Virus record (IMG/VR): IMGVR_UViG_3300023273_000426
Coordinates: 1 to 64,000 of that record
Length of the DNA: 64,000 bases
Reading direction: 5' to 3' (one strand)
From: a virus
A model generated the notes under the pieces. The model was not told the origin of the DNA, did not search any database, and saw nothing but the letters and a program-made list of their open reading frames with translations. Below are positions 1,967 through 21,868 of the stretch, piece after piece (within the stretch, counting starts at the first letter, position 1; each line of letters opens with the position of its first letter). A program made the position numbers and the translations under genes.

Positions 1967-2085
1967 TTGTAAATAAACGGGTCCTTCTTGCGTAGTTCTT
2001 TCAAACGTTTTCTAAAACGTATTTCTTCTTTGATACGTGTGTAAGGCCATATGATAATGTCCCGAATCCTTTTTAGGTAAACCAT
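1963..2085 (-). CDS. Small basic protein, 40 residues
   Basis: A short gene between primase and nucleosidase. It starts at an ATG at 2085, inside the end of the primase gene, and ends with TGA overlapping the nucleosidase ATG. The product is rich in Arg and Lys (segments RIKEEIRFRKRL and ELRKKDPFIYK) with a short hydrophobic stretch before them. The tight overlap on both sides supports translation. I recall similar tiny basic proteins ending in KKDPFIYK in other marine T4-like phages, but cannot check that here. Function unknown; a nucleic-acid or membrane-surface contact is possible. Confidence 0.72.
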   Translation of the reverse strand: MVYLKRIRDIIIWPYTRIKEEIRFRKRLKELRKKDPFIYK

Positions 2086-3053
2086 TTTTTTGCTCTCAAT
2101 CTAATCTTTAATGTGCTGCTTTCGGCAGCACTGGCAATACTGTATAATGTATATAGTCTTCCATAACGTTGTACAGCATCGCCAATGTCGTTTATGTCCA
2201 TATCCCAGTTAGGCAAACTTACTTGCCATCCTAGTTCAATAGCTTGTTCAACTAGTTTGCTGCCTGCTTTATCTCGATCAGGAACTACAATAACATCTTT
2301 ATTTAATCTATTAATCAGCAATGCTTGTGCATCATTGATTTCACTGCCGCCTAATGCACACCCGTCAACGTGTAGTGCATCCACTTGTCCTTCACAAACA
2401 ATAGCAAACACTTTGTTGTAGCCTTGTTCGTCTAATCCATAAACAAATCCAGGCTGTACTTCCATAAGATACTTGGGCTTCTTGTCTGCTGCGATAGTTC
2501 TAGCAGTCCATCCTACAATACGTTTTTCATAGTAGAATGGAATAATAAGTCTATCACGATATGCTAGACTAGGGCTCCAATAGTAATCAGTATCATCTAA
2601 GTTTAGATTACGTGTAGCCATATATTCAAGTATAGCCATACTAAACTTGTTAAACTCTGTAATGTCTGCAATCTTAACTGCGTCTGGCGGCAATGGTACA
2701 GTTTCAAATGTAGGCAGCTCTATCTTACGCTCTGCTACTTCAACGCCTTCGTTTATACGCATCACATCAAACGTTAGCTTCGTTATTGTATCATCACTAC
2801 AACCAAGCCATTGTAGTAGCTTACGTAGCTTGTGCGACACCGGTCTGCCTGGTTGCCAGCTTGCTTTGTATCCACAGTTAAAGCAGTGATAGCTAACAGT
2901 ATCGCCTTCAGAGATAAGTCCGCCACGCCCACGTTTGTCTGCACTATCGCCATTGTGATGACAGCAAGGTGCATTGAAGCTGGTCCAACCACTAGGTGTA
3001 GTTTTACGCTTTCCAGGCAAGTGTGCTGTGATTGTGTCGGATACAATACTCAT
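2073..3053 (-). CDS. 61: DNA primase, T4 gp61 type
   Basis: A 326-residue DnaG-type primase that would make RNA primers for lagging-strand synthesis with the phage helicase. The N-terminus has a CHC2-like zinc finger: PSGWTSFNAPCCHH at about residues 21-34 and YHCFNCGYK at about 55-63. A TOPRIM core follows, with AIVCEGQVDALHV (catalytic Glu) near residue 220 and VIVVPDRDKAGSK (DxD) near 258. Length matches gp61 (about 340). The ATG lies 6 nt downstream of a perfect TATAAT box with no Shine-Dalgarno sequence, so the mRNA may be leaderless. It heads the unit leading to the nucleosidase and carbamoyltransferase. Confidence 0.93.
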   Translation of the reverse strand: MSIVSDTITAHLPGKRKTTPSGWTSFNAPCCHHNGDSADKRGRGGLISEGDTVSYHCFNCGYKASWQPGRPVSHKLRKLLQWLGCSDDTITKLTFDVMRINEGVEVAERKIELPTFETVPLPPDAVKIADITEFNKFSMAILEYMATRNLNLDDTDYYWSPSLAYRDRLIIPFYYEKRIVGWTARTIAADKKPKYLMEVQPGFVYGLDEQGYNKVFAIVCEGQVDALHVDGCALGGSEINDAQALLINRLNKDVIVVPDRDKAGSKLVEQAIELGWQVSLPNWDMDINDIGDAVQRYGRLYTLYSIASAAESSTLKIRLRAKKWFT

Positions 3054-3087: not shown

Positions 3088-4077
3088 TCAGTTTCTAACA
3101 AGTATTTTTGATATCTTATCTGTTGGATCTGTTTCGGTATAAAAACGCAAGTGACTAAACACACCGTTGAAGTTTACAGGAGTTGGTTCTGTTTCAGTTC
3201 CGTCTAGTGTTACTGTAGTAATATTTGCCCATGTTGTATTCAATGTTACTTGATTTTCCAATGTACCCTGTACTACAATATCTCCAGCAAACTCATTTGT
3301 GTATAATGCTGCTGTATGCAATGCAATGTTGCCATTAAGTCCTGGCTGTGCATCCAAACTTTCAGTACTCCAATCAGTTGGTGATTTTTGATCGCTTACA
3401 AAACCAGTTATGCTGTAAGTATCTAATGGGCCTGGAAATGCAAACCCATCGATAAACATAGTTCCTTTTGCTTCAAAATGTGCTTCGCTGTATGTTAGTG
3501 TTTTGGCGCCTGTAGTATCTACAAGATAGATTGCATATTTGGTATACTGTTGTTTTAGATTTAATAAATCGTTTTCAGTTACATTTACAGTAAATACGCC
3601 TTTTTGTGTATTTGTTTGAAATGTAATACTAGTACCAGCTGGAACAGCAGCAGAAGAACTTTTGTTTAGTGTTACTGTATTTCCTGCTATTGCACTTACT
3701 AAAGTATTACGTTTGATATACGTTCCTGTAACAGTTTGACCAACTGCAATGCCACTTGTACTACTAAATTCAAGTGTTGTATCTGCTGCACTTTCAGCTG
3801 CGGTTGTAGTTTTAGATACTACATCATCTAATACGGTTCCATCATGTTCAACAACTAGGTTATTATTTTCATCAAACATCATAAACTTGGGGGTGTATCC
3901 TTGTAGGCTAACTGGTTTTTGATCATGATTTTTAACTTCAAAATGTAGTAAGTTGTCTATACCTCGATAAACGTTTAGGGTTTTTTGATACACTGGTCTA
4001 TACTCCGTTATGAATCCTGCCAGATTGGCAACGATGGTAACTTGGTTCTTTGCTAAATATCTATAAGTTTTCTGCAT
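3088..4077 (-). CDS. Probable virion structural protein
   Basis: A 329-residue protein without a recognised enzyme motif. The N-terminal part (FITEYRPVYQKTLNVYRG, then FEVKNHDQKPVSLQGYTPKF) looks like a beta-rich domain found, from memory, in structural proteins of marine T4-like phages. The middle is a Ser/Thr-rich insert (residues about 85-155) with alternating beta-strand patterns, and the C-terminus is again beta-rich. A late-type box lies about 24 nt upstream with a purine-rich leader (AAAAAAGG) before the ATG, which fits late expression. The -35 of the primase promoter abuts its stop codon. Location in the virion is not known. Confidence 0.7.
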   Translation of the reverse strand: MQKTYRYLAKNQVTIVANLAGFITEYRPVYQKTLNVYRGIDNLLHFEVKNHDQKPVSLQGYTPKFMMFDENNNLVVEHDGTVLDDVVSKTTTAAESAADTTLEFSSTSGIAVGQTVTGTYIKRNTLVSAIAGNTVTLNKSSSAAVPAGTSITFQTNTQKGVFTVNVTENDLLNLKQQYTKYAIYLVDTTGAKTLTYSEAHFEAKGTMFIDGFAFPGPLDTYSITGFVSDQKSPTDWSTESLDAQPGLNGNIALHTAALYTNEFAGDIVVQGTLENQVTLNTTWANITTVTLDGTETEPTPVNFNGVFSHLRFYTETDPTDKISKILVRN

Positions 4078-4110: not shown

Positions 4111-4482
4111 ATGTTATTAAAAGATATAGAACAAAAATTTCCTTTTCTAAGTGTAGTAGCATACGGCGGCAATGAATATGTAGGAATCATTGTTAATCAA
4201 GATGTAACAGTAACAACTATGTATCTATACACCAAACTTAAAACGTCTGCACATAAAGAGCTATTAATCGAACTTGGTGAAATATGGTGGTGGGAGTCGA
4301 ATAGGATGATTCCTATTAATATTTTCTTACGTAAAGAAATACAAGATATTAGCTATAGTTTAATGACCATGAATACCAAAGATGTTAAGGTTATTGTTGG
4401 CCCGTGTGTTAATCTAAACAATCTAACTATAAAACGTATTAAACGCAAAAGCGTTCAAGTTATGCGGAAGCCTGCTCGTTAA
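4111..4482 (+). CDS. Conserved phage protein of unknown function
   Basis: A 123-residue protein on the opposite strand to its neighbours. Visible segments include YGGNEYVGIIVNQD, LIELGEIWWWESNRMIPI and MNTKDVKVIVGP, then a basic tail IKRIKRKSVQVMRK. I recall similar proteins (an ELGE-WWWESNR core and a basic end) in marine T4-like phages, with no known function. It overlaps the 3' end of the convergent miniature-DnaE gene by 23 nt. The basic tail could bind nucleic acid (inference). Divergent from the structural gene at 3088-4077, with only 33 nt between the two starts. Confidence 0.72.
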   Translation: MLLKDIEQKFPFLSVVAYGGNEYVGIIVNQDVTVTTMYLYTKLKTSAHKELLIELGEIWWWESNRMIPINIFLRKEIQDISYSLMTMNTKDVKVIVGPCVNLNNLTIKRIKRKSVQVMRKPAR

Positions 4483-5032
4483 GTTGTTCGCATACTAAAT
4501 TCATATGCACAACACACGCCGCAGCATAACTAACAGCATGTGCTTTCTTAAAGAAGTAACTTCCGTCAGTGGGTGCGACCCACACACTTTCTAATATCGT
4601 TGTCCAAGTTTCGTTGACAAGATGGCGTTTGGCAGGCCGAATCATCGCTAACACTGCTGCTAATTGTTCTACGCTTTGTGGCTTTGTTTTGCGTAGGATT
4701 TCCCCATGTCCGGAGATATGAAAGATAAGATTTGTGAAATCGTCGTGTTGTAAAAGACTCCATTCGGGTTCCTTGTTCATTAGTGTTGTTAAATGATCTT
4801 CGTCTTTGATATTGTTGTAAATGTTTACATTCAAAAAGTCAAGTTTGAAATAGCCTCTATCTTCTGCTGTCTTGTAATCAATAGTACTCAAGTTATCAAT
4901 AGGATTATGCGGACACTCGGTTACATACACACCAGTGTTGTGCTTCTTTCCTGTATCAAGTTTTGCCACACGGTGTTGTATCTTAGATAAGATAACACTG
5001 CGATCAGCAAAGTCGATGTCAATATCCGGCAT
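4460..5032 (-). CDS. Miniature DnaE/PolC-like protein (condensed Pol III alpha core)
   Basis: A 190-residue protein that strings together the signature motifs of the bacterial replicative polymerase alpha subunit with the intervening domains removed. It begins MPDIDIDFADR (catalytic Asp pair at residues 3 and 5), then KKHNTGVYVTE (compare the GKHAGGV motif), YFKLDFLNV (third catalytic Asp at 65), ISGHGEILRKTKP leading to LAAVLAMIRPA, and finally FFKKAHAVSYAAA (compare FNKSHSAAYALVSY). DnaE is about 1160 residues. The start overlaps the upstream nucleotidyltransferase stop by one base. Whether it polymerises, or is a regulator or decoy, is unknown. The family resemblance is clear to me; the function is not. 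Confidence 0.78.
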   Translation of the reverse strand: MPDIDIDFADRSVILSKIQHRVAKLDTGKKHNTGVYVTECPHNPIDNLSTIDYKTAEDRGYFKLDFLNVNIYNNIKDEDHLTTLMNKEPEWSLLQHDDFTNLIFHISGHGEILRKTKPQSVEQLAAVLAMIRPAKRHLVNETWTTILESVWVAPTDGSYFFKKAHAVSYAAACVVHMNLVCEQLNEQASA

Positions 5033-5421
5033 TAGAGTTTACCTTCTTCTCTCATTTGTTTTCTTATTTTAGTAGCACTAATATCGTGTATGTCTTTGCC
5101 CAAGTCATGTTCGGTAAATGAATATCCTACACTGCGTCCATAACTAATATCTACAATGTTTGGTACTTTTGCTATTTCGTATTCTTTGTGCAATGTATAT
5201 CCAACTTGTTTTAATCCTGTAATAATATTGTTTCTAACTACATAGTAATCAAATGGATTGTCATCTTGGCCAGGTCCTGCATCCTCACCTTGAACATCTC
5301 TGCACATAATAATAACTTGACCAGTTTTTTCCATTGCACGTTTGAATAGTTCAGTGTGACCATCGTGCCAGGGTTGCCATCGTCCTAGCATTTGTGTGGT
5401 TGGCTTCTTCCAATCAAACAT
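5032..5421 (-). CDS. NMNAT-like nucleotidyltransferase
   Basis: A 129-residue member of the HxGH nucleotidyltransferase superfamily. The N-terminal motif MLGRWQPWHDGH (HDGH at residues 19-22) closely resembles GRFQPFHxGH of archaeal-type NMN adenylyltransferases, and the C-terminal ISATKIRK (114-121) matches the ISxTxIR motif that binds the ATP phosphates. The protein is short (archaeal NMNAT is about 170-180). It overlaps the APS-kinase-like gene upstream by 8 nt. A part in NAD synthesis or in activation of another phosphate compound is possible; cytidylyltransferase chemistry cannot be excluded. Confidence 0.8.
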   Translation of the reverse strand: MFDWKKPTTQMLGRWQPWHDGHTELFKRAMEKTGQVIIMCRDVQGEDAGPGQDDNPFDYYVVRNNIITGLKQVGYTLHKEYEIAKVPNIVDISYGRSVGYSFTEHDLGKDIHDISATKIRKQMREEGKL

Positions 5422-5845
5422 TTTTCTCTCTCCATTGCTGATATCTTTTTACAGCAAGCATTAATGTATTATGAGTATCTGTAAACCATTCACTAACACG
5501 ATAGTCTACAACATCCGGTGTTTCGAATATTGCATTTGTATCTTCGTAACGGCCTTCTTTGATAGTATCCATCCACACAGTAAAGTCTGCATCAAACTTT
5601 TTACGAGTTTCTTCAGTAGGACACACAAAGTCACATACAGCAACCCTTCCAGCAGATACAACGCCATCTGCAATCATACTCATACGAAATGCCTGGCGTT
5701 CTCTACCTTCTTTGCTAAAATCCCAGTCTTTGTATTTTTCTCTAACAACATCTGCATTGATATGTACGCCGCCGATTAGTTCTGCAAATGGTTTTGCCAA
5801 TGTTGATTTACCACTGCCTGGTAATCCAAATATTAATATTTTCAT
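5414..5845 (-). CDS. APS-kinase-like P-loop kinase
   Basis: A 143-residue P-loop kinase. Walker A is FGLPGSGKST (residues 6-15). INADVVRE stands where APS kinases have DGDNVR, and the segment DFSKEGRERQAFRMSMIADG with VSAGRVAVCDFVCPT follows the APS kinase pattern (GFS..DR.EN.RR...A.L....G..V...FISP). The family makes PAPS from adenylylsulfate. It is somewhat short and lacks the canonical DGD, so polynucleotide- or small-molecule-kinase activity is an alternative. It is translationally coupled to the zinc-finger gene upstream and the nucleotidyltransferase downstream. A sulfotransferase gene elsewhere in the window (30166-30726) would consume PAPS. Confidence 0.72.
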   Translation of the reverse strand: MKILIFGLPGSGKSTLAKPFAELIGGVHINADVVREKYKDWDFSKEGRERQAFRMSMIADGVVSAGRVAVCDFVCPTEETRKKFDADFTVWMDTIKEGRYEDTNAIFETPDVVDYRVSEWFTDTHNTLMLAVKRYQQWREKNV

Positions 5846-6522
5846 AACTTAGCTTCTTTCACAACCTGTCTTACTAGATCAACATCATTTGGGTTGCGTT
5901 TAAATCTCATTGCCCAGTGTCCTGGCTCTAGTACTGTACCTAACATAGTTAACTGTTCGTCATTAAAGTTATTTAGTGCAGCTTTGCCTGTTTTACAATT
6001 TAGTACCAGCCATGGAGATATTTTTCCATCTCTAATATCCCAAGTAATTCTATTTGTACTTGCGTGTTCAAAGTAATGATTGTACAAACTACTATTTTCT
6101 TTTGCCCAGTTTACCATAGTATCAATACTACGTTCGAGAGCAGTTTGGACGCCTTCTTTGCGAATAAGTTCGTTGGCGTATTTTTCATACATTTCTTCTC
6201 TACACCAATGATCAAGTTTTACATTACTAGTAACAACATAGTCAATGTACTTGTCAGGATACAGCGGTCTTACGTTGTTAACAAAACTTCCAAACTTAAC
6301 AAATGCATTGTAGAAACTACTTTTAACAAACTCGTCATAGCTTTTTTCTTTTTTATTACCTGCACTTAACTTGTAAAATCTTTGAAATGCGTAAAATCCA
6401 ATAGTTACTCGCTTTTCATCTTTTTGTAGCCAACGTCTTTTAGGCTCACACATATGGGCAATAAGAGTACTTTCTTTTGAATAACTTTTATTACAATATT
6501 CACATGTATATTTAGATGTCAA
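5842..6522 (-). CDS. C2HC zinc-finger protein of unknown function
   Basis: An N-terminal zinc finger CEYCNKSYSKESTLIAHMC is followed by about 200 residues without a known domain; WLQKDEKRVTIGFYAFQRFY and NRITWDIRDGKISPWLVL stand out. I place the start at a TTG at 6522, just before the finger (product 226 residues, 11-nt overlap with the upstream gene). An ATG at 6603 would add 27 residues buried deep in the upstream gene and is less likely. Zinc-finger proteins of this form occur, as I recall, in marine T4-like phages without assigned role. Nucleic-acid binding is a reasonable guess. Overlaps the APS-kinase-like gene by 4 nt. Confidence 0.75.
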   Translation of the reverse strand: MTSKYTCEYCNKSYSKESTLIAHMCEPKRRWLQKDEKRVTIGFYAFQRFYKLSAGNKKEKSYDEFVKSSFYNAFVKFGSFVNNVRPLYPDKYIDYVVTSNVKLDHWCREEMYEKYANELIRKEGVQTALERSIDTMVNWAKENSSLYNHYFEHASTNRITWDIRDGKISPWLVLNCKTGKAALNNFNDEQLTMLGTVLEPGHWAMRFKRNPNDVDLVRQVVKEAKL

Positions 6523-6982
6523 CTTTTTCGTATCCGTGATCGTTTGCAAGTTGCTTGATTTCTTTTTTTGTAGATATTCTAGCAAGTGTTTCAACCTCAT
6601 CAAGTTTCATATTAGGATATATTTGCGATAATAGTTTTACTTCTTTACTACTATCGTCTTTCTTTTTCTTGAGTCCTATCCAAGGATGGAACTGTTGTTT
6701 TCCTGTATTACCTGCTACACACAACAACTGCCATTGCAGTTTGATATGATTGGTGCCACCTAGTACATTCCAGTTTTTGTTGTAGTATTCGTTGACTTTG
6801 AACACTGCTAGTGCAGTTTTTTCATAGTTACCTTTAACACTACTAATATATCGATTGAGATTCCACAGGTCGCCTTTGATATCTTTTCTGCCAACATCAC
6901 TAGCAGCATCGTATAACTCTTTCATGTTGTTATCGATTGCTGGTATTAATACTTTAAACAAGTCCAGTTCTTTATTTGGCAT
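6512..6982 (-). CDS. Conserved phage protein of unknown function
   Basis: A 156-residue protein starting at an ATG at 6982 (MPNKELDLFKVLIPAID); a start at 7033 is possible but would overlap the 56-residue gene by more. It has the pattern FKVNEYYNKNWNVL, then KLQWQLLCVAG and HPWIGLKKKK, which I associate with an uncharacterised family near replication genes in marine T4-like phages. The C-terminal third (LDEVETLARISTKKEIKQLA) is predicted helical. The protein is soluble, basic in the middle and has no signal peptide. It is in an operon between the 56-residue gene and the zinc-finger gene. Confidence 0.7.
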   Translation of the reverse strand: MPNKELDLFKVLIPAIDNNMKELYDAASDVGRKDIKGDLWNLNRYISSVKGNYEKTALAVFKVNEYYNKNWNVLGGTNHIKLQWQLLCVAGNTGKQQFHPWIGLKKKKDDSSKEVKLLSQIYPNMKLDEVETLARISTKKEIKQLANDHGYEKVDI

Positions 6983-7142
6983 CCGCTGGTTTCTTTTCTG
7001 CTGGTTTCTTTTTCTTGCCCCAAGTGTATACAATATCGTCTTGTTCAGTTTTTGCTCCAGGAGGGCATACTTCTACTTTGTTTCCCTTGGATAACCATTC
7101 ATCTATTGCTGCTTGATCGCTTTTAGTTATTTCGTATCTCAT
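6972..7142 (-). CDS. Small conserved protein, 56 residues
   Basis: A short gene starting at an ATG at 7142 within the end of kdsB and ending at TAA 6972, inside the start of the next gene. The product has ITKSDQAAIDEWLSKG, NKVEVCPPGAKT and a Lys/Ala/Pro-rich tail (WGKKKKPAEKKPADAK). I recall short proteins with a KGNKV.VC.PGA core in other marine T4-like phages. Overlaps with both neighbours fit the compact operon. Function unknown. Confidence 0.72.
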   Translation of the reverse strand: MRYEITKSDQAAIDEWLSKGNKVEVCPPGAKTEQDDIVYTWGKKKKPAEKKPADAK

Positions 7143-7803
7143 TTTTAATGTGCCAATCTTTTAGATCTTGGGGTGAATTTATTTCAATGCCATCAAACTC
7201 AACTTCAACAACACCAATCCTAATACTATTTTGTATCCAACGCAGTTGCTCAAGTTGTTCTAATGTTTCTTCTGTATACTTGGTGCTTGCATTGTACATT
7301 GCCTTTACTTCTCTGTTGTATCCGTAAATACCTAAGTGATGATCTCCGTATGGCAAACTAGCTCTTAAGAACCAATGTGCCCTACCTCTATTATGTATCA
7401 TTTTAACACAGTTTGGATCACTTCGCAAGTTAAAATCCATTGTAGTATATGCAGTTGCTACATCGCTGCGTTGTAGTTCTGCTTCAACTGCACGAATGAT
7501 ATCTTCTGTAATATCAGGCATGTCGCCTTGTACATTTATGTAACGATCGTATTCTAATACTTTGTCGATTACTTGCATACAACGTTCGGTGCCGTTTTCC
7601 GCTTCTGTGGTCCAAAGACATTTAGTTGCACCAAGATAATTATATACCGTTTGATCGTCGGTTAGCACATATGTGTCTAATCCTGTAGCAGCACATTTGT
7701 TGTAAATGTGTTCTATCATAGGCACACCGTTTAACGGTGCCATAACCTTGCCAGGAAATCTTGTACTAGCGTATCTAGCAGGTATTAATATTGCTGTGGT
7801 CAT
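7123..7803 (-). CDS. kdsB: CMP-KDO synthetase (3-deoxy-manno-octulosonate cytidylyltransferase)
   Basis: A 226-residue KdsB-like enzyme, which would activate KDO with CTP to CMP-KDO, the donor for lipopolysaccharide inner core or capsule. The N-terminus has the nucleotidyltransferase loop ILIPARYASTRFPGKVM; YVLTDDQTVYNYL, TEAENGTERC and INVQGDMPDI (metal-binding Asp region) follow. I chose the ATG at 7803, which overlaps the kdsA stop in an ATGA, over one four residues earlier. KdsB is usually about 250 residues, so this is slightly compact. Directly downstream of kdsA, forming a two-step KDO module. Confidence 0.93.
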   Translation of the reverse strand: MTTAILIPARYASTRFPGKVMAPLNGVPMIEHIYNKCAATGLDTYVLTDDQTVYNYLGATKCLWTTEAENGTERCMQVIDKVLEYDRYINVQGDMPDITEDIIRAVEAELQRSDVATAYTTMDFNLRSDPNCVKMIHNRGRAHWFLRASLPYGDHHLGIYGYNREVKAMYNASTKYTEETLEQLEQLRWIQNSIRIGVVEVEFDGIEINSPQDLKDWHIKNEIRNN

Positions 7804-8591
7804 AGCCAACTCCATCCTCTAGCAGCATCGCTGATTACTTTAATCTGCTTTACTGTATCTTCAAAGTCTTCTAGTCGTAACATATTAGGACCGTCACTAG
7901 GCGCATTGTCTGGGTCGGCATGTACTTCTAAGAAGAAGTTGCTAATGCCCATAGCAGCGGCAGCACGAGCAAGACCTGGGACGTAATCACGATTACCGCC
8001 AGACGATTCACCGGCCCCTCCAGGTTTTTGTACTGAGTGCGTTGCGTCAAATACGATCGGAACGCTAAAGTTATCAAGCATGTACTGCATACCATTAAAA
8101 TCGACCACAAGATTGTTATATCCAAAGCTAGTTCCTCTTTCTGTTATCCATACTTCTTTAGCACCTTCTGTTTTTGAAAGGATACCTTTTACGTCCCACG
8201 GTGCAAGAAACTGTCCTTTTTTGATATTTACAACTTTGTCTGTAGCACAGGCTGCTTGTATTAGATCAGTTTGTCTACATAAGAATGCAGGAATCTGTAG
8301 TACATCGATTGCATCATCAAACTCGTCTCTAATAGTATGCACTTGGCGCACATCGTGTACATCTGTGAGAGTTTTTACTCCAAGTGTTTTTTTGATTTCA
8401 CGAAAGTCAAACAGTGTTGCGTACAGTCCTTGTCCGCGTTCGCCGTTTGCACTTGTACGGTTAGCTTTGTCGTAACTAGCCTTGAAGATATATTCTATGC
8501 CGTACTTGTCGCATACACGCTTGCATTCTTTAGCAATCTCTGCTGATTGTGCTAGTGTCTCGTGCTGGCATGGTCCTGCGATAATTCTCAT
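7800..8591 (-). CDS. kdsA: KDO-8-phosphate synthase
   Basis: A 263-residue KdsA, condensing arabinose-5-phosphate with phosphoenolpyruvate to KDO-8-phosphate. Signatures: IAGPCQHET at the N-terminus, FKASYDKANRTS, VLQIPAFLCRQTDL, NIKKGQFLAPWD, ERGTSFGYNNLVVDF, FDATHSVQKPGG and the C-terminal FLEVHADPDNAPSDGPNML. Asn in KANRTS and Cys in IAGPCQ are as expected for this family. It has its own sigma70-type promoter inside the upstream gene and an AAGGA ribosome-binding site. No KDO-8-phosphate phosphatase or KDO transferase is visible in the window, so host enzymes would have to complete the route, or they lie elsewhere. Confidence 0.96.
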   Translation of the reverse strand: MRIIAGPCQHETLAQSAEIAKECKRVCDKYGIEYIFKASYDKANRTSANGERGQGLYATLFDFREIKKTLGVKTLTDVHDVRQVHTIRDEFDDAIDVLQIPAFLCRQTDLIQAACATDKVVNIKKGQFLAPWDVKGILSKTEGAKEVWITERGTSFGYNNLVVDFNGMQYMLDNFSVPIVFDATHSVQKPGGAGESSGGNRDYVPGLARAAAAMGISNFFLEVHADPDNAPSDGPNMLRLEDFEDTVKQIKVISDAARGWSWL

Positions 8592-10077: not shown

Positions 10078-10567
10078 AATCTATTATCTCACACTGTCTA
10101 CTTATATCCTTAACAAAAAATGCACATAGAGGATTTTCTCCTTCTGTAATCGGAACACTTAAAAGTTGTCCGTTTTTCATTTTAGGAAAATACCATTTAA
10201 CATCGTTATAGAAATTTACTATCTCAATGCTACCAAATCCTGGCTGAAAACTAGTTAGTGGATTGAACAAAAAAGATTCAAATCCACGTTCATTTAAACT
10301 TGTAATCGGCAATACTTCTAAATCACTGCCGGCTTCACTACATCCAACAGCAATACACCAATCCAATGGCATAGTAACTTGATGTCCATTAATTTCTATA
10401 ACTGCTGCCGGACTATTAAAACTTTCTAAAAAGATTAATGGTACATAAAAGAAATCAGGATCTTGTGGACTACTGTTATCTAACACACTAAATCGCATAG
10501 TGTCGTCTACTTCTTCTGGCAAACTATTTAAGTTAAAACTTTTATTTTCTAATGTAAGTATATTCAT
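10061..10567 (-). CDS. Conserved phage protein next to UvsW
   Basis: A 168-residue protein of unknown function. Recognisable segments are MPLDWCIAVG, VLPITSLNERGFESFLFNPL, IEIVNFYNDVKWYFPKMKNGQLLSVPI and NPLCAFFVKDIS. I recall the same order of motifs (a PL-WC core, then PITSLN-RGF, VKWYFPK) in marine T4-like phage proteins of unknown role. No zinc site, transmembrane helix or signal peptide. It overlaps uvsW by 4 nt. Confidence 0.72.
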   Translation of the reverse strand: MNILTLENKSFNLNSLPEEVDDTMRFSVLDNSSPQDPDFFYVPLIFLESFNSPAAVIEINGHQVTMPLDWCIAVGCSEAGSDLEVLPITSLNERGFESFLFNPLTSFQPGFGSIEIVNFYNDVKWYFPKMKNGQLLSVPITEGENPLCAFFVKDISRQCEIIDFGKLL

Positions 10568-12036
10568 TTATTCCAATCTACTTTCTCAATTGTGAATGGA
10601 TACTCTGCTTCTTTGTAAAACTTTTTACGCTGAGTTAGATGTCGCTTCGCAAACTTACACGTACTTGTAAGATCCCATATTTGTACGAAGTCTTTATCTT
10701 TTGCCTTTCTTACGCCTCTACCAATACTTTGTATAACACGCACGAAAGACTTACCAGGCTCAAGGAGAACAAGATTAAAAATACGTGGAATGTTAAGGCC
10801 GACGGCGGCGACTCCATACGTTGCGATAATGACTTCATTAGTTCCTTCGCGAATCGTGTCATATGTTTCCTTTCTGTCTTTGTTCTTAACAGCGCCGCTT
10901 ATAAATGTGCTGCCTGGTATCAGTTCTGCTAGTGCTTCACCTGCACTAATTCTATCTACTAGTATAAGTGTATTGCCTGAGTCTTTTACTGTATTTAATA
11001 GTTTGCCTATATATTCTAAACGTGCTGTATTTGTTGTTAAATATTTTAATTCTTCTTGGTAGCCTGCATGTGCTACTGTATCTATTAGTTGTACTACATT
11101 AACATGACATTGTGATAATACACCTTTGTCTTGTAATTCTTTTGCACTAATATTGCCAATCACTGGACCAAGACTAGCGTGAATACTTTCGAACTCAAAC
11201 TTCTCTTTAGGCACCGTGCCAGTTAGTCCCCAACGTATGGGTGCATTACGTAGGTTGCGAGTAAGCAAGTTCTTAAGAACTTCTGCTTTGGCTTGGTGTA
11301 CTTCGTCGACAATAATAGTGCTTACACCTTCTAAGAATTCGGCCAGTGATAACACTGCGCTTCCGTCCTTATGCTTCTTGTCTAGAATATTCAAACTCTG
11401 CCAAGTGCATATAGTGTGAGTCTTACCTAAGTTCTTCCTGTCTCCGAAGTACACCCCTACATCGAGACCGCAGTTAATATAGTCCTCTTCTGTTTGTTCT
11501 ACTAAGCTCTTGTTAGGAACAATCACAAGACTTCTACCATACGGCTCAGTTATGTGTGACAGCGTTGCTGTAGTAATAGTTTTACCTGCACCAGTAGCAA
11601 TCTGTTGCAAGCTCTGTGGATTGTTTAAAAAGTTGTTGATTGCCTCAACTTGATAATCTCGAAGAATAATGTCTTCGCCTTCTGCAGGATGACCTTCCGG
11701 CCATTGTACGCCTTGGTCTGCCCAATAACTTTCTGTTACTGGAGTAAAGTTTAACTGTATTGGATGTCGTCTGTCTTCAATGTCTACAATCTGTACACGA
11801 TTTTTAGAGAGCACTTCTTGTACAACATCAAGATGATTAACATAACCAGTGCCGCCAATACCAAAAAAAGCAACCTTGCCGTCCCAACGTCCGAGTTTGT
11901 ATTGTGGCATGTGTTTTGCATATGGTACTTCAAACTTTAGTGCATTAGACAGTTTGCGTCTAACGTCTACATCAAGTCCTTCTATCTTAATGTTTACTTC
12001 ATCTTCGATTATCAGTTTACAACTTGCCACTGGCAT
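10564..12036 (-). CDS. uvsW: UvsW-like DNA/RNA-DNA helicase
   Basis: A superfamily 2 helicase of about 490 residues. Motif I is ATGAGKT (residues about 147-153), motif II DEVH (244-247), motif III GLTGT, and motif VI QSIGRGVRK near residue 445. The N-terminal part with QYKLGRWDGKVAFF matches the UvsW N-terminal domain (YGNWDGRIRL in T4). In T4, UvsW unwinds R-loops and branched DNA and switches origin-dependent to recombination-dependent replication. Starts at an ATG at 12036 or a GTG at 12030 are both possible; GGGAG is placed better for the GTG. An earlier TTG at 12045 is less likely. Confidence 0.93.
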   Translation of the reverse strand: MPVASCKLIIEDEVNIKIEGLDVDVRRKLSNALKFEVPYAKHMPQYKLGRWDGKVAFFGIGGTGYVNHLDVVQEVLSKNRVQIVDIEDRRHPIQLNFTPVTESYWADQGVQWPEGHPAEGEDIILRDYQVEAINNFLNNPQSLQQIATGAGKTITTATLSHITEPYGRSLVIVPNKSLVEQTEEDYINCGLDVGVYFGDRKNLGKTHTICTWQSLNILDKKHKDGSAVLSLAEFLEGVSTIIVDEVHQAKAEVLKNLLTRNLRNAPIRWGLTGTVPKEKFEFESIHASLGPVIGNISAKELQDKGVLSQCHVNVVQLIDTVAHAGYQEELKYLTTNTARLEYIGKLLNTVKDSGNTLILVDRISAGEALAELIPGSTFISGAVKNKDRKETYDTIREGTNEVIIATYGVAAVGLNIPRIFNLVLLEPGKSFVRVIQSIGRGVRKAKDKDFVQIWDLTSTCKFAKRHLTQRKKFYKEAEYPFTIEKVDWNK

Positions 12037-13186
12037 AACTCCCAAAAAGACCTACATGATTATCATTATATATAATGCAGTCGCAGTTTATATCTACATA
12101 ATACTTTACATTACTACGTGAGCGTATGCTAGATTTACTTAAACAACAAATAGGTAAAAAACTAGAACTCAATAAAGTCTTAGGTAGTTTGTTCTTTTTA
12201 ATATATACTATTTTTGTGTTGTTGTCAACCCAATTATTTAACTTTTGATTTTTTACATATGCATTTAACTCTAAGTTTTTTGTATCACTTGAATCTACTC
12301 TAAACATAACCGATTGCAAACTACTATCAACATATGGTAAAAATGCTTGATGAGCTTCAATAAGTTGTTGATGACAATCATCTTCATCAACTGTAACAAT
12401 CAACGGAAACCGATTGAGTACATTAATACTATTTGCAATATCACTCATTGTCCATGTTTGAGGGTCTGCTGGTACAGACGAACTTGTTCTATAAGCAATC
12501 ATTTCAGTTAAGTCTAGAGAATCAATGTTATCATTTGAATAGCCGTATCTTAATGAACGATCAGCTTGTTGTAAAGGTGTTAGACTTTTTATGTATTCGC
12601 GTTCTGTTGTATCCATTCTGTTTAATACATTTTCAAATGACGAACTATACTTTGATTTATCATCTAATATATTTTTAACTTTGTTAACATATTCAACTAT
12701 TATTTCATCAGTTTTAAAACTACGTTCTTCTAATGCGCTGAGTATTTTAAACGCATTAGTTGGTGTTAGTTTATAAAAGTGTTCGTGCGATCCGCGAACA
12801 TGAAAATATTCTCGATTTGGTATATTTAAACTTTGTATTTTTACTATATCTTTTTTATTAAACGGAAATCTCACCTTGATCCATGTAGAATCTTTCGACG
12901 ATGGTTTGAACCGTGGTCGACCAGGAATACTTTCTCCATCAATAATAATAATATATTTTTCTCTATTAACAGATCTCAACGGCATACGTGTTGGTAAATC
13001 TTCTATAGAAATATTATCCAACTCTGATTCAAATGGTTTTAGCTTTTCTAAAACCAATGCATATTGTCTATCAGTTAATGCAACATCTTTTTGTGTTTGT
13101 TGACATATACTTTCTAAAATAGCACGAGCAGGCGTTTCTATGTTAACTTCGTATAATAGTTTATGGAGTACATTTTCTAAGTTCAT
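12017..13186 (-). CDS. Conserved phage protein of unknown function, upstream of uvsW
   Basis: A 389-residue protein. The N-terminal third (NIETPARAILESICQQTQKDV, then YIIIIDGESIPGRPRFKPSS) leads to STWIKVRFPFNKKDIVKI and YFHVRGSHEHFYKLTP. The C-terminal half has INVLNRFPLIVTVDEDD and NTKIVYIKKNKLPKTLL. I recall proteins with this motif order beside uvsW in marine T4-like phages, without a function. No Walker motif is seen; a nucleic-acid-related role is inferred from position. It has its own sigma70-type promoter, whose -10 box is 6 nt before the ATG with no Shine-Dalgarno sequence (leaderless candidate). Confidence 0.75.
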   Translation of the reverse strand: MNLENVLHKLLYEVNIETPARAILESICQQTQKDVALTDRQYALVLEKLKPFESELDNISIEDLPTRMPLRSVNREKYIIIIDGESIPGRPRFKPSSKDSTWIKVRFPFNKKDIVKIQSLNIPNREYFHVRGSHEHFYKLTPTNAFKILSALEERSFKTDEIIVEYVNKVKNILDDKSKYSSSFENVLNRMDTTEREYIKSLTPLQQADRSLRYGYSNDNIDSLDLTEMIAYRTSSSVPADPQTWTMSDIANSINVLNRFPLIVTVDEDDCHQQLIEAHQAFLPYVDSSLQSVMFRVDSSDTKNLELNAYVKNQKLNNWVDNNTKIVYIKKNKLPKTLLSSSFLPICCLSKSSIRSRSNVKYYVDINCDCIIYNDNHVGLFGSYASGKL

Positions 13187-16624: not shown

Positions 16625-16790
16625 ATTATTTTCCTTAACTTCTTTTAATATTTTATCCGGCTGGTATACTACTCTGTCAGGATCAACTATATCCTGTACT
16701 GTTGCATTAAAATAATCAATAAGATATTTTGGATAATCTAAGTCGTCTATTTTTCTATCTCTAAATCTTAAATCACCGATCTTTTTTTTT
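16625..16790 (-). other. Possible -1 frameshift site (nine-A run) and open in-frame extension
   Basis: The glycosyltransferase gene ending at 16768 contains a run of nine A (16782-16790) read CAA AAA AAA AGA in frame, followed after four codons by its stop. Slipping back one base gives AAG ATC GGT GAT and an open frame that continues into the next gene without a stop: residues such as DYPKYLIDYFNATVQDIV and PDRVVYQPDKILKEV. That frame has no ATG, GTG or TTG before the ATG at 16624, and a TGA closes it about ten codons before the run. Confidence 0.5.
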
Positions 16791-17523
16791 GACTTTCGAT
16801 TATTTCTTCATGCATACGACTTTTTGCATTATACCATTCACTTGCATATTCGCAAGATTCATATTGTTTAAACCAAGGGCCACCTTCTGTGTAGTGTAAA
16901 AACTTTGGAGATCCATCCTCTGGTTCTTTGTACCATCCTACTAACCAGTTCCATTCGTGACTTAGTTCTCCAATTTCTGTATCGTCTAGCCAACTAAATC
17001 TATGAAAGTATGCTCCAGTTTTATGTACATTGTTTACTTGTTCGGCTGTTATACTTGCATTGCTAGGATGCCCACAGTTAATAAGCATCATACTACTCCA
17101 GTTTTTACGTGGATATATATGCTGAACTTGTCCGTCCATTTTTACAGTTTCTTTTGGAGTGTAATCATGTTGAGCGCACATCACAGCATATTTGTCATCA
17201 ACTTGGTCAAACAATAGTTTAACATCTTCGAGAGCAACAAAGTCACAGTCAATAAACAATGCCCAACCTTTATACTCGGTTAAATGCGGAATAAGAAATC
17301 TTGTAAATGTAAATTCTGTACTTGCTAACGCATCTACTGGTCTAGTATATACTTTATGCTTACGAAGTTCTTTTTGCTTCAATGGTATAACTTCAACAGG
17401 AACACTAGCAAGTTGTTCAATACTGCTTTTACACACTTGGTATGCAATATCTTCTCTGCTATCCCAACCTACAAATATTTTTAATGGTTCAATAGGTTGA
17501 TCTATTTTAATCTCTTCGCTCAA
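16768..17523 (-). CDS. Glycosyltransferase, GT8-like
   Basis: A 251-residue protein. The N-terminus IFVGWDSREDIAYQV and the metal motif ALFIDCDFVALEDV (DCD at 92-94) are followed by DKYAVMCAQHDYTP, WSSMMLINCGH and near the C-terminus PKFLHYTEGGPWF, a set seen in retaining GT8-type enzymes and in phage homologues. The product would transfer a sugar from a nucleotide sugar to a glycan. The last codons include the nine-A run discussed at 16625-16790. It overlaps the HldE-like/cupin gene by 17 nt. Confidence 0.85.
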   Translation of the reverse strand: MSEEIKIDQPIEPLKIFVGWDSREDIAYQVCKSSIEQLASVPVEVIPLKQKELRKHKVYTRPVDALASTEFTFTRFLIPHLTEYKGWALFIDCDFVALEDVKLLFDQVDDKYAVMCAQHDYTPKETVKMDGQVQHIYPRKNWSSMMLINCGHPSNASITAEQVNNVHKTGAYFHRFSWLDDTEIGELSHEWNWLVGWYKEPEDGSPKFLHYTEGGPWFKQYESCEYASEWYNAKSRMHEEIIESQKKRSVI

Positions 17524-18271
17524 TATCTTTCTCCGTTAATTCGTTACCTAACCATACTTCTATTACACGAACTGTCTTTTCGTCATTGTTAACTGCTTTA
17601 TGCCAGCAAAGTGCAGGTATATCTAAACTGTGACCTTGGCCAACAACATATGTGTGCTTTTCTTCGCCGTCATACTGTAGTGTAATCTCTACATTACCTT
17701 CAACTACATGCCAATGTTCCGAACGTGTAAAATGCCGTTGGTCGCTTAATGCTTTACCTGCATCAAACTCTAGTTGTTTTACTTGCCAGCCATCGCCCTT
17801 GTCTAGCACAGTGTATCTGCCCCAAGCACGTTCTGTAGTAGGTTGGCTCCATTCTTTTAGTATCCAACTGCTACTGTTTTTCTTGTCCTCACCGCCAACA
17901 CCAAATACAAATTCTACATCAGGATGATTGCCGTATGTTGCTTGTTCTGGTATGCTACCATCAACTCTATCGCCTCCGTTGGCGACAATCAACTTGCCTC
18001 TGTGTGTGGCAAGCAAATAACCAATAGCTTGTGTTGTGCCGCCTGTGTCGTCGTCTTTAACAAGTATAACTTCATCAACACAAGCAAGTTCTTTTACTAT
18101 TGCAGCACGTTCGTGAAAAGGCATAAACGGCCTGCCTTTTTTATTCACAAGCCATGTATCGCTGTTTAATCCTACAACTAGTTTATCGCCCAACTGTTTT
18201 GCTGCTTTAAAATATTCAATATGACCGCTGTGAAGTGGGTCGAACCCGCCTGTAACTAATACTGTTTTCAT
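17507..18271 (-). CDS. HldE/RfaE2-like nucleotidyltransferase fused to a cupin
   Basis: A 254-residue two-domain protein. Residues 1-140 form an HxGH nucleotidyltransferase (GGFDPLHSGH with HSGH at 14-17, then GLNSDTWLVNKKGRPFMP and ERAAIVKEL), the pattern of the adenylyltransferase half of HldE and of glycerol-3-phosphate cytidylyltransferase. Residues about 160-240 form a cupin (HFTRSEHWHVVEGN, with H180, H186 and H188; later IPALCWHKAVNN), resembling the cupin half of mannose-1-phosphate guanylyltransferase/isomerase. Such a fusion suggests that it makes or edits an activated sugar for the cassette. It overlaps the glycosyltransferase after it; the gap to the FkbM gene upstream is 8 nt. 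Confidence 0.83.
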   Translation of the reverse strand: MKTVLVTGGFDPLHSGHIEYFKAAKQLGDKLVVGLNSDTWLVNKKGRPFMPFHERAAIVKELACVDEVILVKDDDTGGTTQAIGYLLATHRGKLIVANGGDRVDGSIPEQATYGNHPDVEFVFGVGGEDKKNSSSWILKEWSQPTTERAWGRYTVLDKGDGWQVKQLEFDAGKALSDQRHFTRSEHWHVVEGNVEITLQYDGEEKHTYVVGQGHSLDIPALCWHKAVNNDEKTVRVIEVWLGNELTEKDIERRD

Positions 18272-18279
18272 AATAGTAC

Positions 18280-18855
18280 TTATATGATAGTTTTATTCTG
18301 TTCTAAAAAAGTGGCATATGTTATTTGTTCGTAGTTAATATTTTTATTTACAAACCACGTTTCGTATATTTTTTCAGGTTCGTCATTTATGAATACTTGA
18401 TCAACTGCAACTTTGTATCCATTGCTAACCATAAACTCTTTTGCAAGTAGATTATATTTGCTGCCTTCTTGATACTCATCGTGTTCAAATGTTATACAGT
18501 CAAATGTAACGCCTTGACTTATTACTCGTTGTAATGCTCGAAATGTATTTGCAGCAGGTTCGATATCACAGCTCAAATATCCTACATGCATATTCATATT
18601 ATTTTCTTGTATTGCTTTTTGATAATCAAAAGTTAGTGCATTTTCAAAATAACATTTATTGTTTCTAGATTCTGCTTGCCAATCTGGTAAGTGTTTTTGT
18701 GAAAGCTCAATACTAAAACCTTGAAAGTTGTTGTTTTCTAACTCGTATGTGTTGTTAAACTTTACAGGTTTTTTGGCGCCGATTTCGATATAAGATTTTG
18801 TAGTGCATATGTTTAATGCAAATAAATCTTGACATGATTGAGAATAGGATTTCAT
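18280..18855 (-). CDS. FkbM-family methyltransferase-like protein
   Basis: A 191-residue protein with the N-terminal pattern SQDLFALNICTTKSYIEIGAKKPVKFNNTYEL and GFSIEL, as in FkbM-type methyltransferases (SQ..QD.F, then the SAM-binding IG motif and NNTY). LSCDIEPAANTF and DCITFEHDEYQEGSKYN correspond to the later motifs. The usual GAND of the SAM loop reads GAKK here, so activity is less certain. In the family the product O-methylates sugars. It shares one base with the dehydrogenase gene upstream. Confidence 0.72.
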   Translation of the reverse strand: MKSYSQSCQDLFALNICTTKSYIEIGAKKPVKFNNTYELENNNFQGFSIELSQKHLPDWQAESRNNKCYFENALTFDYQKAIQENNMNMHVGYLSCDIEPAANTFRALQRVISQGVTFDCITFEHDEYQEGSKYNLLAKEFMVSNGYKVAVDQVFINDEPEKIYETWFVNKNINYEQITYATFLEQNKTII

Positions 18856-19649
18856 TAACTTCTCATTCCATTGAATACTGTTTTCTTAAACTTTTCATTA
18901 TCAGTATGCACACTGTTAATCAGTTCAAAGTCTAAGTTTAGTTGCTTTAATAAAGATGCTATTGCTTGTGTATCTTTAGGCAAGCACATACCACCATACC
19001 CTCTAAGATTGGGATTTACATCTAAATACATATCAGTAGCTTTGCCCGTTTTGATATAGGCATTTTTAATCGTAGTATAATCGCAATCTAACTTTTCACA
19101 AATTTCGTACATAACATTTGCAAATGTGACACGCAAAGCAGCGTACACATTGTTATAATATTTTAAAACTTCTGCTTCATTAGGCGTTAGGTGTTCTGTG
19201 TGTTCTGGTAACTCGCCGTGTGCTTTTACAAGTTTACGATACACCCAAATATCATGTGTGCCAATTGCAAGCAACTTATGATTGTTAATAAAATCTTCTG
19301 CTGCACAACGTTCACGTAAAAACTCTGGCACAAAACATATAGTAAGATTTCTATATGTATCTATCATGCGTTGTGTAAATCCTGGAACAACTGTACTACG
19401 TATTGCAATAATACCTTTGTAAGAATAAAGATTGAGTTCTTTTATTACTGATTCTAATATACTTGTATCACAACTTCCATCAGCAGCTTGAGGAGTAGGC
19501 ACACATAGAAATGCTATTTCGGCATCCAAGACTTCGTTGATTGTTGTGTCAAGTTTTGTATCATGTGTAACTAGGTCATGTCCTAGCATACTAAACCCTG
19601 AATAATTGGCACTGCCTACCGCGCCCATACCTATAATACCTATCTTCAT
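18855..19649 (-). CDS. UDP-glucose/GDP-mannose dehydrogenase-like, C-terminal domain absent
   Basis: A 264-residue protein. The Rossmann motif GIIGMGAVGSAN, FLCVPTP, RSTVVPGFTQ, PEFLRERCAAEDF, the NEAEVLKYYNNVYAALRV helix and the catalytic cysteine in RGYGGMCLPKDTQA are all present, in the order known for UDP-glucose and GDP-mannose dehydrogenases. Members usually have 390-450 residues. The C-terminal UDP-binding domain (about 120 residues) is missing: the stop is at residue 264 and the next gene begins at once. Since the catalytic Cys is present, this may be a compact oxidoreductase rather than a broken gene. It overlaps the epimerase gene by 4 nt. Confidence 0.85.
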   Translation of the reverse strand: MKIGIIGMGAVGSANYSGFSMLGHDLVTHDTKLDTTINEVLDAEIAFLCVPTPQAADGSCDTSILESVIKELNLYSYKGIIAIRSTVVPGFTQRMIDTYRNLTICFVPEFLRERCAAEDFINNHKLLAIGTHDIWVYRKLVKAHGELPEHTEHLTPNEAEVLKYYNNVYAALRVTFANVMYEICEKLDCDYTTIKNAYIKTGKATDMYLDVNPNLRGYGGMCLPKDTQAIASLLKQLNLDFELINSVHTDNEKFKKTVFNGMRS

Positions 19650-21258: not shown

Positions 21259-21868
21259 AAATATAATCCTTTCTTACATTTGTTATTTCACGAGCACCAA
21301 ACGATTTTAAAAATAGACCAGCACATTCGTCAGTATCAGCTTGTTGTTCGCATACAATAATAGGTTTGTATTTTAGTATTGTATCCATTGCACCCTTGAG
21401 TACTTCAAGTTCGTGTCGCTCGCAGTCTATCTTTAATAGGCCAAACTTAGGAAGATTCAAATCGTCTAGTCGTTTGATATTAATACTACCTTGTCCTATA
21501 TTGCTTACAAAACTTCCGCCAGTGTTTTCAGGATCGTATACCATTTCAACTAAATCGTTTACGTTTCCTAATGCATGTTTATGTATGTCTACGTTTAATC
21601 CTGCTACATTACTTTCTAAACAACTATACACTTGTTCAAGTGGCTCAAATGCTATTACACGTTTAAATCTTTCAGTAAGAGGTTTTGCCCATAATCCGAC
21701 ATTGGCTCCGATATCAATAGCAATATCAAAGTCTCTTACATATTTGTATGCTTCATCTCTTACATCATCTTGATATTGTGCAGGGCCGCCATTGTTAATA
21801 CGTTTGGTAATCAATCTTTCAAAATGATTATCAGTATCAGGCATCCAATAGTTGTATACTTGTTTCAT
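21248..21868 (-). CDS. FkbM-family methyltransferase
   Basis: A 206-residue SAM-dependent methyltransferase. Motif I is DIAIDIGANVGLWAKPL, then RVIAFEPLEQVYSCLESN, LKIDCERHELEVLKGA and KPIIVCEQQ, matching the FkbM set (DIGAN, FEP, KIDxEG-like, E). In this family it methylates sugar or polyketide hydroxyls, commonly in surface-glycan clusters. The stop is shared with the TTG start of the glycosyltransferase gene. It begins with an ATGA overlap at the end of the 151-residue gene. Confidence 0.9.
   Translation of the reverse strand: MKQVYNYWMPDTDNHFERLITKRINNGGPAQYQDDVRDEAYKYVRDFDIAIDIGANVGLWAKPLTERFKRVIAFEPLEQVYSCLESNVAGLNVDIHKHALGNVNDLVEMVYDPENTGGSFVSNIGQGSINIKRLDDLNLPKFGLLKIDCERHELEVLKGAMDTILKYKPIIVCEQQADTDECAGLFLKSFGAREITNVRKDYIFGW

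What the first reader, a model, noticed from the sequence alone, without database searches (positions are those of the whole stretch)
4460..5032. A 190-residue protein that keeps every core motif of bacterial Pol III alpha (DnaE)
Seen: the order PDIDIDF, KKHNTGV, KLDF, LRKTKPQSVEQL..LAMIRPA and FKKAHAVSYA follows DnaE exactly, including three catalytic Asp (3, 5, 65) and the Lys before the third. Known: DnaE is about 1160 residues, and the palm and thumb between these motifs are absent here. Inference: the phage has kept or evolved a condensed polymerase-like core, perhaps acting as a regulator, a decoy for the host clamp, or an unusual nucleotidyl enzyme. It lies in a cluster with an NMNAT-like and an APS-kinase-like gene.
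Basis: partly seen in the sequence, partly recalled or inferred. Interest (0 to 1): 0.85.

Follow-up and report, generated by a model that had tools for sequence, protein, structure and literature searches.

The report
Half of a split mini-polymerase
This small phage protein is most likely one half of a stripped-down DNA polymerase of the bacterial replication type whose other half is made from a distant gene; such a split enzyme was already predicted in large phages in 2021, and the work here tests and sharpens that prediction.

Summary
ORF 4460-5032 (-) encodes 190 residues with the DnaE motif order, D3, D5, D65 and K63; it is PHROG 11778, E 1.3e-58. In relatives the GRGSxxxS nucleotide-binding half lies in a separate gene of about 170-190 residues, 15-224 kb away. 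Models of the two chains tile DnaE almost end to end: E. coli 278-393 and 400-784. Metal ligands, Lys, His and the GS motif are invariant in 166-167 and 122 distinct sequences. 59 of 60 listed C-chain phage records also list the N chain, and the C chain sits by primase and replicative helicase genes. A decaying fragment or clamp decoy is unlikely. Iyer et al. 2021 (PMC7824862) already described this split minimal Pol III alpha, so this is a new member of a known, untested kind. Not met in my paper searches: an unsplit mini-DnaE of about 550 residues near the C chain in close relatives. The N chain is not on this 73-kb record; binding and activity are inferred.

The parts
4460..5032 (-). C-terminal chain of a split minimal Pol III alpha (190 aa): DxDxD metal ligands (D3, D5), KH motif (H31), K63-x-D65, RP (132-133), FKKAH (161-165)
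4111..4482 (+). convergent 123-aa ORF (phrog_11637) overlapping the 3' end of the C chain; found on the opposite strand at 154 of 155 loci with enough flank; function unknown
2073..3053 (-). DNA primase (phrog_47; T4 gp61-like by context); downstream of the C chain at 70 of 70 loci with enough flank
3088..4077 (-). virion structural-like protein (phrog_14467; weak BppU_N) between the C chain and the primase; 130 of 141 loci with enough flank
5842..6603 (-). C2H2-type zinc-finger protein (phrog_11058) upstream of the C chain; 155 of 157 loci with enough flank
5032..5421 (-). NMNAT/cytidylyltransferase-like ORF whose stop overlaps the C-chain start (TAATG); variable cargo, 24 of 162 loci with enough flank
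5414..5845 (-). APS-kinase/AAA_33-like P-loop kinase; variable cargo, 25 of 161 loci with enough flank
10564..12045 (-). DNA helicase (phrog_16, E 1.5e-77), at the place of genes annotated UvsW in relatives; 32 of 60 loci with enough flank

Best explanation
The 190-residue protein is the C-terminal chain of a two-chain, minimal C-family (DnaE/Pol III alpha) polymerase core. It supplies the two palm strands with the three metal-binding Asp, the Lys, and a trimmed finger region. In relatives a separate phage protein of about 170-190 residues supplies the other half of the palm with the GRGSxxxS nucleotide-binding motif; the two would fold together without covalent joining. Together they make a core of about 375 residues without the PHP domain, the DnaE thumb, most of the fingers, or the C-terminal clamp- and tau-binding parts. 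Shown by computation: homology, fold, complementarity of the two chains, invariance of the active site, co-occurrence, and a location in the primase-helicase block of phages that mostly also carry a family B polymerase. Inferred: that the chains bind each other, that the complex makes DNA, its role, and that this particular phage has the partner gene. My best guess for the role, at about one in three, is short synthesis on primers or gaps before hand-off to the family B replicase, as Bacillus DnaE does before PolC (recalled).
For: AF2 C chain: pLDDT 93.4, pTM 0.82. VIA-align: the 15 best entries are Pol III/PolC or titled 'DNA polymerase' with matching ranges, Z 6.3-9.8, next entry 3.3; E. coli 400-784, 2hpi 461-841, PolC 3f2b 971-1358. 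N chain: pLDDT 88.0, pTM 0.69; 15 best entries of the same kind, Z 7.9-12.5, next 3.0; E. coli 278-393, 2hpi 293-455, PolC 824-965. Gap between the chains 5-6 residues in each. hhalign to the DnaE set: C 97.3% E 1.9e-11, N 97.05% E 7.7e-11, control 0.4%. D3, D5, D7, H31 in 166 of 166 and K63, D65, R132, P133, H165 in 167 of 167 distinct C chains; G153, R154, G155, S156, S160 in 122 of 122 distinct N chains. N chains match PF07733 in 58 of 58. 59 of 60 listed C-chain phage records also list the N chain; the exception is a 109-kb record. N chain and family B polymerase are present in the same 11 of 19 records and both missing in the other 8, which are fragments. An unsplit 574-aa homologue in LR756508.1 matches the N and C profiles in order in one frame. 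Synteny: primase 70 of 70, gp41-type helicase 57 of 61. G001, whose C chain is 80% identical and which falls in the window's own small clade of C chains (6 tips, support 0.855), has both chains and PolB.
Against: Single-sequence support is weak: Pfam finger E 0.018, no phmmer PDB hit at E<=10, family profile against PDB best E 0.037, hhalign to E. coli DnaE alone 9.9%. Foldseek TM-scores by query length are only 0.39-0.48, with large rmsd, and 7 of the 15 VIA entries lie below Z 8. DnaE-invariant residues are missing or replaced: finger R709 and K714 lie in the deleted segment, Q610 aligns with His (160 of 167), and R390 with an invariant Glu in the N chain. The thumb is gone, so it is unclear how the core grips DNA. 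3 of 19 large split-family records lack the N chain (G002, G016, G018); two of them carry PolB. In G016 neither the N chain nor its GroES-like neighbour was found in the 40 kb where it was expected. The closest relatives of the window (87%, 86%, 82% C-chain identity: G039, G009, G007) carry an unsplit mini-DnaE and show no separate N chain, though their contigs are only 30-98 kb. No complex was modelled and I know of no activity data.
Confidence: 0.82

Rival explanations
1. Catalytically dead Pol III mimic: the C chain, alone or with the N chain, is a regulatory or scaffold subunit of the phage replisome and makes no DNA. This overlaps with the best explanation as to what the protein is and differs on activity.
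For: Thumb and most of the fingers are missing (ranges); DnaE finger residues R709/K714 are absent by alignment; the phages mostly have a family B polymerase already.
Against: All metal ligands, K63, H31 and the GS motif are invariant over 166-167 and 122 distinct sequences, some C chains only 32-36% identical to the window. Dead mimics usually lose them.
Confidence: 0.22
2. In the window's own lineage the C chain works with, or is kept beside, the unsplit mini-DnaE rather than a separate N chain.
For: 16 of 16 mini-DnaE records tested carry an intact-looking C chain and none shows a separate N chain: their N-profile hits all lie in the 550-605-residue mini-DnaE frames. 0 of 15 records with both N and C chains have mini-DnaE.
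Against: The mini-DnaE contigs are 17-101 kb, while N and C chains of G001 lie about 122 kb apart, so the N chain would be off them anyway. Mini-DnaE has its own complete set of motifs. N-chain and mini-DnaE carriers are mixed on the C-chain tree, also in the window's own small clade.
Confidence: 0.12
3. Decoy or inhibitor of the host replisome, for example one that occupies the host beta clamp.
For: Homology to host-type DnaE.
Against: The match to DnaE ends at E. coli residue 784, before the clamp-binding region (position recalled). No QxxLF-type clamp motif in the 190 residues by a simple pattern. Primase downstream at 70 of 70 loci with enough flank.
Confidence: 0.04
4. Remnant of a full-length polymerase gene that is decaying.
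For: Only 190 of about 1160 residues remain.
Against: 166 of 167 distinct C chains are 185-232 residues from stop to stop, with an invariant active site; relatives in at least 552 IMG/VR stretches and 63 phage records.
Confidence: 0.01
5. Stand-alone or template-independent nucleotidyltransferase acting without any N half, for instance on RNA or nucleotides.
For: A palm half with the metal site is present; in 24-25 of about 162 loci it neighbours nucleotide-metabolism genes; 3 of 19 large records show no N chain.
Against: It lacks the GS motif that binds the incoming nucleotide in this family (recalled function). The N chain co-occurs in 59 of 60 listed phage records and 16 of 19 large uncultivated records. 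The kinase and NMNAT-like neighbours are variable.
Confidence: 0.05

Closest known systems
Split minimal DNA polymerase III alpha of group 2.2 jumbo phages (Iyer et al. 2021, PMC7824862; section 3.4.1 read, plus passages)
   Same: Phage-specific minimal Pol III alpha split into an N-terminal NTP-binding and a C-terminal Mg2+- and DNA-template-binding protein, encoded by distant genes, beside a family B polymerase. Their group 2.2 includes Atu_ph07, which carries both chains here.
   Different: Not in the parts I read: the tiling against solved structures, the invariance counts, the primase-helicase synteny, and the unsplit mini-DnaE in relatives. The window is an uncultivated relative. I link it to their C-terminal unit by description, not by accession.
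PHROG 11778 (C chain) and PHROG 11127 (N chain), both labelled 'DNA polymerase'
   Same: Window protein: phrog_11778 E 1.3e-58. Three N chains: phrog_11127 E 6e-37 to 1e-86.
   Different: The labels do not say that the two families are halves of one enzyme.
Bacterial DnaE / PolC (C-family DNA polymerase)
   Same: Palm strands with the three Asp, Lys, KH motif, start of the fingers, FxKxH helix.
   Different: No PHP domain, thumb, most of the fingers or C-terminal regions; split in two chains; 190 aa against 1160 in E. coli.
Cyanobacterial split DnaE (dnaE-n/dnaE-c with split intein; recalled, titles seen in the listing)
   Same: DnaE encoded in two genes.
   Different: No intein-like extra sequence: N chains end in ...EFLR/K (in some one more residue) and most C chains start at MPDIDID, so assembly would be non-covalent.
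Unsplit phage mini-DnaE (about 540-575 aa)
   Same: Same catalytic core in one frame, matched in order by both profiles in LR756508.1; lies about 5-10 kb downstream of the C chain in relatives.
   Different: One chain that keeps more of the fingers (YRRAFAKK); a separate gene that coexists with the C chain in 16 of 16 records tested.

Membership tests
Split minimal Pol III alpha of group 2.2 jumbo phages | C-terminal unit with the Mg2+-binding Asp and a template-binding part | tested here: met
   D3, D5, D65 and K63 invariant; fold match to palm and start of fingers
Split minimal Pol III alpha of group 2.2 jumbo phages | separate N-terminal NTP-binding unit encoded far away in the same genome | tested here: inconclusive
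   Met in relatives (59 of 60 listed phage records; G001 with 80% identical C chain). Not found on the window's own 73-kb fragment nor on 16 mini-DnaE contigs.
Split minimal Pol III alpha of group 2.2 jumbo phages | accompanied by a family B DNA polymerase | tested here: inconclusive
   Present in 17 of 19 large split-family records; not on the window's own fragment
C-family DNA polymerase (DnaE/PolC) | three catalytic Asp and the adjacent Lys in palm strands | tested here: met
   (distances between the Asp not measured)
C-family DNA polymerase (DnaE/PolC) | GS nucleotide-binding motif in the same protein | tested here: not met
   Absent from the 190 aa; found in the N chain, 122 of 122 distinct sequences
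C-family DNA polymerase (DnaE/PolC) | PHP, thumb, full fingers, clamp- and tau-binding regions | tested here: not met
   Match covers E. coli 400-784 with 183 aligned residues only (2hnh); between anchor residues 26 against 108 residues at the thumb and 29 against 117 in the fingers (anchors)
C-family DNA polymerase (DnaE/PolC) | template-directed DNA synthesis | not testable with these tools
   needs biochemistry
PHROG 11778 | profile match over the whole protein | tested here: met
   E 1.3e-58, residues 3-183 of 190

The most novel reading that the evidence does not exclude
The window's phage lineage carries three DNA polymerases: a T4-type family B replicase; a non-covalent two-chain C-family polymerase of about 375 residues that works without thumb and most of the fingers, smaller than any C-family polymerase I know of and dedicated to the primase-helicase machinery; and a separate unsplit mini-DnaE of about 550 residues beside the replicative helicase. 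The last shows an unsplit small form living beside the split one, or taking over the N half's part.
Probability: 0.3. Interest if true: 0.75.

Novelty: new member of a known kind. Interest (0 to 1): 0.48.

Why it matters
If the two chains form an active enzyme, it would be a polymerase of the bacterial replicative family stripped to about a third of its size and split through its active site. That is a natural test of which parts of Pol III alpha are needed, and a second polymerase in T4-type replisomes. [quoted passage not shown] IMG/VR holds at least 552 C-chain and 488 N-chain stretches, and coliphages that grow on laboratory E. coli carry both, so the prediction can be tested now.

Tried and rejected
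Single-sequence Pfam and PDB searches gave only weak signals, as did hhalign to E. coli DnaE alone, so profiles and structure models were used. The window's record G000 was searched for a family B polymerase, PF07733, the N chain and mini-DnaE: no match on the 73-kb record. The decaying-fragment and clamp-decoy ideas were rejected on conservation and on the region matched. An intein-type trans-splicing idea was dropped because neither chain has long extra sequence at the junction.

I asked whether the unsplit mini-DnaE replaces the N chain: unresolved. 16 of 16 mini-DnaE records have the C chain, none a separate N chain, but the contigs are 17-101 kb. Of 15 records with both N and C chains (9) none has mini-DnaE; weak mini-DnaE hits in W01, W06, G015 and G026 lie on their N chains. 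On a C-chain tree the two kinds of carriers are mixed (some supports are low, and two mini-DnaE loci had dropped out as identical rows).

VIA-align rows of Z 3.3 and below (glyoxalase/FosA folds, Wzc and others) were taken as unrelated. The N-chain part before about residue 70 matched nothing in VIA; it was not folded alone.

Papers: PMC7824862 (section 3.4.1 whole, other passages), PMC6102473, PMC5259590, PMC11646218, PMC9123017 (passages), PMC13282480 (searched for polymerase terms, none found). Searches for the split or minimal Pol III and for DnaE-like proteins in jumbo phages returned no experimental study that I could recognise from the listed titles and abstracts; the lists were cut, and the library lacks most subscription papers.

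Full report
What is there. Its start overlaps the stop of the upstream NMNAT-like gene (TAATG), and its 3' end overlaps a convergent 123-aa ORF (4111-4482). It is a member of PHROG 11778 (E 1.3e-58). The record is a 73,460-base uncultivated virus fragment. T4-type genes in the window include a primase, UvsX-like recombinase, ssDNA-binding protein, terminase and tail sheath, a gp15-like sheath stabiliser and a helicase.

Is it DnaE-like? Alone, the sequence gives weak database signals. As a family the case is firm. hhalign of 79 C chains against 13 DnaE-type proteins gives 97.3%, E 1.9e-11, aligned to E. coli 509-642. Against E. coli DnaE alone it is only 9.9%, E 0.0032. Comparing the C- and N-chain profiles gives 0.4% as the one control. 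The 7 PDB sequences hit by the profile at E<=10 (best 0.037) are all Pol III alpha, with blocks in DnaE order. AlphaFold2 gives pLDDT 93.4 and pTM 0.82. Foldseek's first 15 chains are Pol III or titled 'DNA polymerase', with E from 5.4e-4 to 0.15 and TM-scores by query length of 0.39-0.48. VIA-align puts 15 such entries first at Z 6.3-9.8 (8 of them at 8 or more), then falls to 3.3. In 2hpi (Taq, recalled) and PolC, model residue 1 aligns with 461 and 971, which would place D3 on the catalytic Asp 463 and 973 (numbers recalled). E. coli D401, D403, K553 and D555 were read from the sequence, and hhalign pairs K63 and D65 with K553 and D555. I could not measure Asp-Asp distances.

The protein does not keep every core motif: the GRGSxxxS nucleotide-binding motif is absent. 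A PF07733 search of relatives found it in a second gene of about 170-190 residues (lengths). That N chain ends in ...EFLR/K, where E. coli DnaE runs on FLN-PERVSM-PDFD, and most C chains begin at MPDIDID. VIA-align of the N-chain model (pLDDT 88.0, pTM 0.69) gives E. coli 278-393, M. tuberculosis 7pu7 305-413, 2hpi 293-455 and PolC 824-965. The C chain gives 400-784, 419-808, 461-841 and 971-1358. The two chains tile the family's catalytic core with a gap of 5-6 residues in each case. The N chain's first 70 or so residues match nothing listed.

Do the two belong together? Of 63 C-chain phage records 60 were listed; of 150 records hit by the N query (which include full DnaEs) 60 were listed. 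59 accessions are in both lists. PP728206 (109 kb) is in the C list only and OR228459 in the N list only; either may be among the unlisted rows of the other. In the 15 of these 59 for which I compared positions, the genes lie 14.6-224 kb apart. In 19 large uncultivated split-family records the C chain is in 19, the N chain in 16 and family B polymerase in 17. 9 of the 19 were picked through C-chain hits and 10 through N-chain hits, and the three without N were all C-picked. These are linear fragments, but G016 and G018 do carry PolB. In G018 the place expected from the PolB-N spacing of relatives runs off the contig. In G016 the 40 kb looked at lacks both the N chain and its GroES-like neighbour. 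In an earlier set of 19 records, N chain and PolB were present in the same 11 and missing in the same 8, the window's own record among these.

Is the site kept? After removal of identical rows (189 loci to 167 C chains, 178 to 122 N chains), D3, D5, D7 and H31 are invariant in 166 of 166. K63, D65, R132, P133 and H165 are invariant in 167 of 167; one 140-aa row lacks the N-terminus. In the N chain G153, R154, G155, S156 and S160 are invariant in 122 of 122. Mean column identity in the 79-row C-chain alignment is 53%. Against this, finger residues R709 and K714, invariant and nearly invariant in the 13-sequence DnaE set, fall in the deleted segment, and some DnaE invariants are replaced (Q610 by His in 160 of 167; R390 by an invariant Glu; pairing). 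The core is therefore a family of its own and may not work exactly like DnaE.

Where it sits. At 166 loci, counting only those with enough flank and a match anywhere in the locus, the C chain has a C2H2-type protein (155 of 157), the convergent ORF (154 of 155, opposite strand), a structural-like protein (130 of 141), primase (70 of 70), gp41-type replicative helicase (57 of 61) and a UvsW-like helicase (32 of 60). In PBECO4 a gene annotated 'DNA polymerase exonuclease subunit' lies in the same block, and in CBB a DnaQ-domain gene is next to uvsW (PMC5259590 passage). That paper's truncated, 172-aa Pol III alpha is CBB_328, near the gp44 gene CBB_332 by number; in the CBB record the gene annotated 'DNA polymerase III alpha' is the N chain, while the C chain is annotated 'putative membrane protein'.

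Unsplit relatives. G007, G009 and G013 also encode a mini-DnaE of 540-551 residues in one frame; in G007 and G009 the gene before it is a DnaB-like helicase. 308 IMG/VR stretches encode relatives. All 16 mini-DnaE records that I tested carry the C chain and none shows a separate N chain; they include the closest relatives of the window (C chains 87%, 86% and 82% identical: G039, G009, G007). Their contigs are 17-101 kb, shorter than the 122 kb between the two chains in G001. None of 15 records with both chains has mini-DnaE. On a C-chain tree the window's clade of 6 (support 0.855) holds one mini-DnaE carrier and G001, which has N chain and PolB but no mini-DnaE. The 484-kb LR756508.1 has a 574-aa unsplit form that both profiles match in order, plus family B polymerase. 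The window record starts too early to show this region.

Mechanism and novelty. Iyer et al. 2021 (PMC7824862, section 3.4.1 read) already reported this split minimal Pol III alpha in group 2.2 jumbo phages and suggested that it might help to make one of the strands or in repair. The window is therefore a new member of a known, so far untested kind. I favour a two-chain active polymerase working with the primase-helicase machinery: activity about 0.65, and the primer-extension or gap-filling role about one in three. Shown by computation: homology, fold, complementarity, conservation, co-occurrence and synteny. Inferred: binding, catalysis, role, and the presence of the partner in this particular phage.

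Noticed in passing
L094:1474-3129, L093:538-2184 (minus), L177-L256: Unsplit mini-DnaE of about 540-551 aa, in G007 and G009 next to a DnaB-like helicase, in aquatic T4-type phages that also carry the C chain (16 of 16 tested); whether the N chain and PolB are also there is open because the contigs are short.
   Followed up: partly
window 7123-8591: KdsB-like (CTP_transf_3, E 8e-25) and KdsA/DAHP-synthase-like (E 1.5e-56) genes side by side, suggesting phage-encoded KDO/CMP-KDO synthesis.
   Followed up: no
window 16768-21868: Run of glycan genes: glycosyltransferase-8-like, cytidylyltransferase/mannose-P-isomerase, a shortened UDP-glucose-dehydrogenase-like protein, NAD epimerase, FkbM methyltransferase.
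   Followed up: no
window 17507-18271: 254-aa protein joining a cytidylyltransferase-like domain to a cupin/mannose-6-phosphate isomerase C-terminal domain.
   Followed up: no
window 33615-36911: Very long tail sheath protein (1098 aa; phrog_10581 E 1.5e-233), with a separate gp15-like sheath stabiliser on the other strand at 40274-41977.
   Followed up: no
window 46262-57148 and 57268-63945: Two giant ORFs of 3628 and 2225 aa, not searched.
   Followed up: no
PHROGs 7513 (461 positions) and 13169 (463 positions): N-chain and mini-DnaE matches end at about 438-452 and 408-411 of these profiles, near their C-termini; they may be other N-terminal-only DnaE halves, i.e. separate splits in other phages.
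   Followed up: no
L089, L090, L096 (downstream of the N chain): In three distant phages the N chain is followed by a 113-127 aa protein and then a GroES-like protein (phrog_3188 E 5e-6 to 1e-5; phrog_931 'head morphogenesis' scores better).
   Followed up: partly
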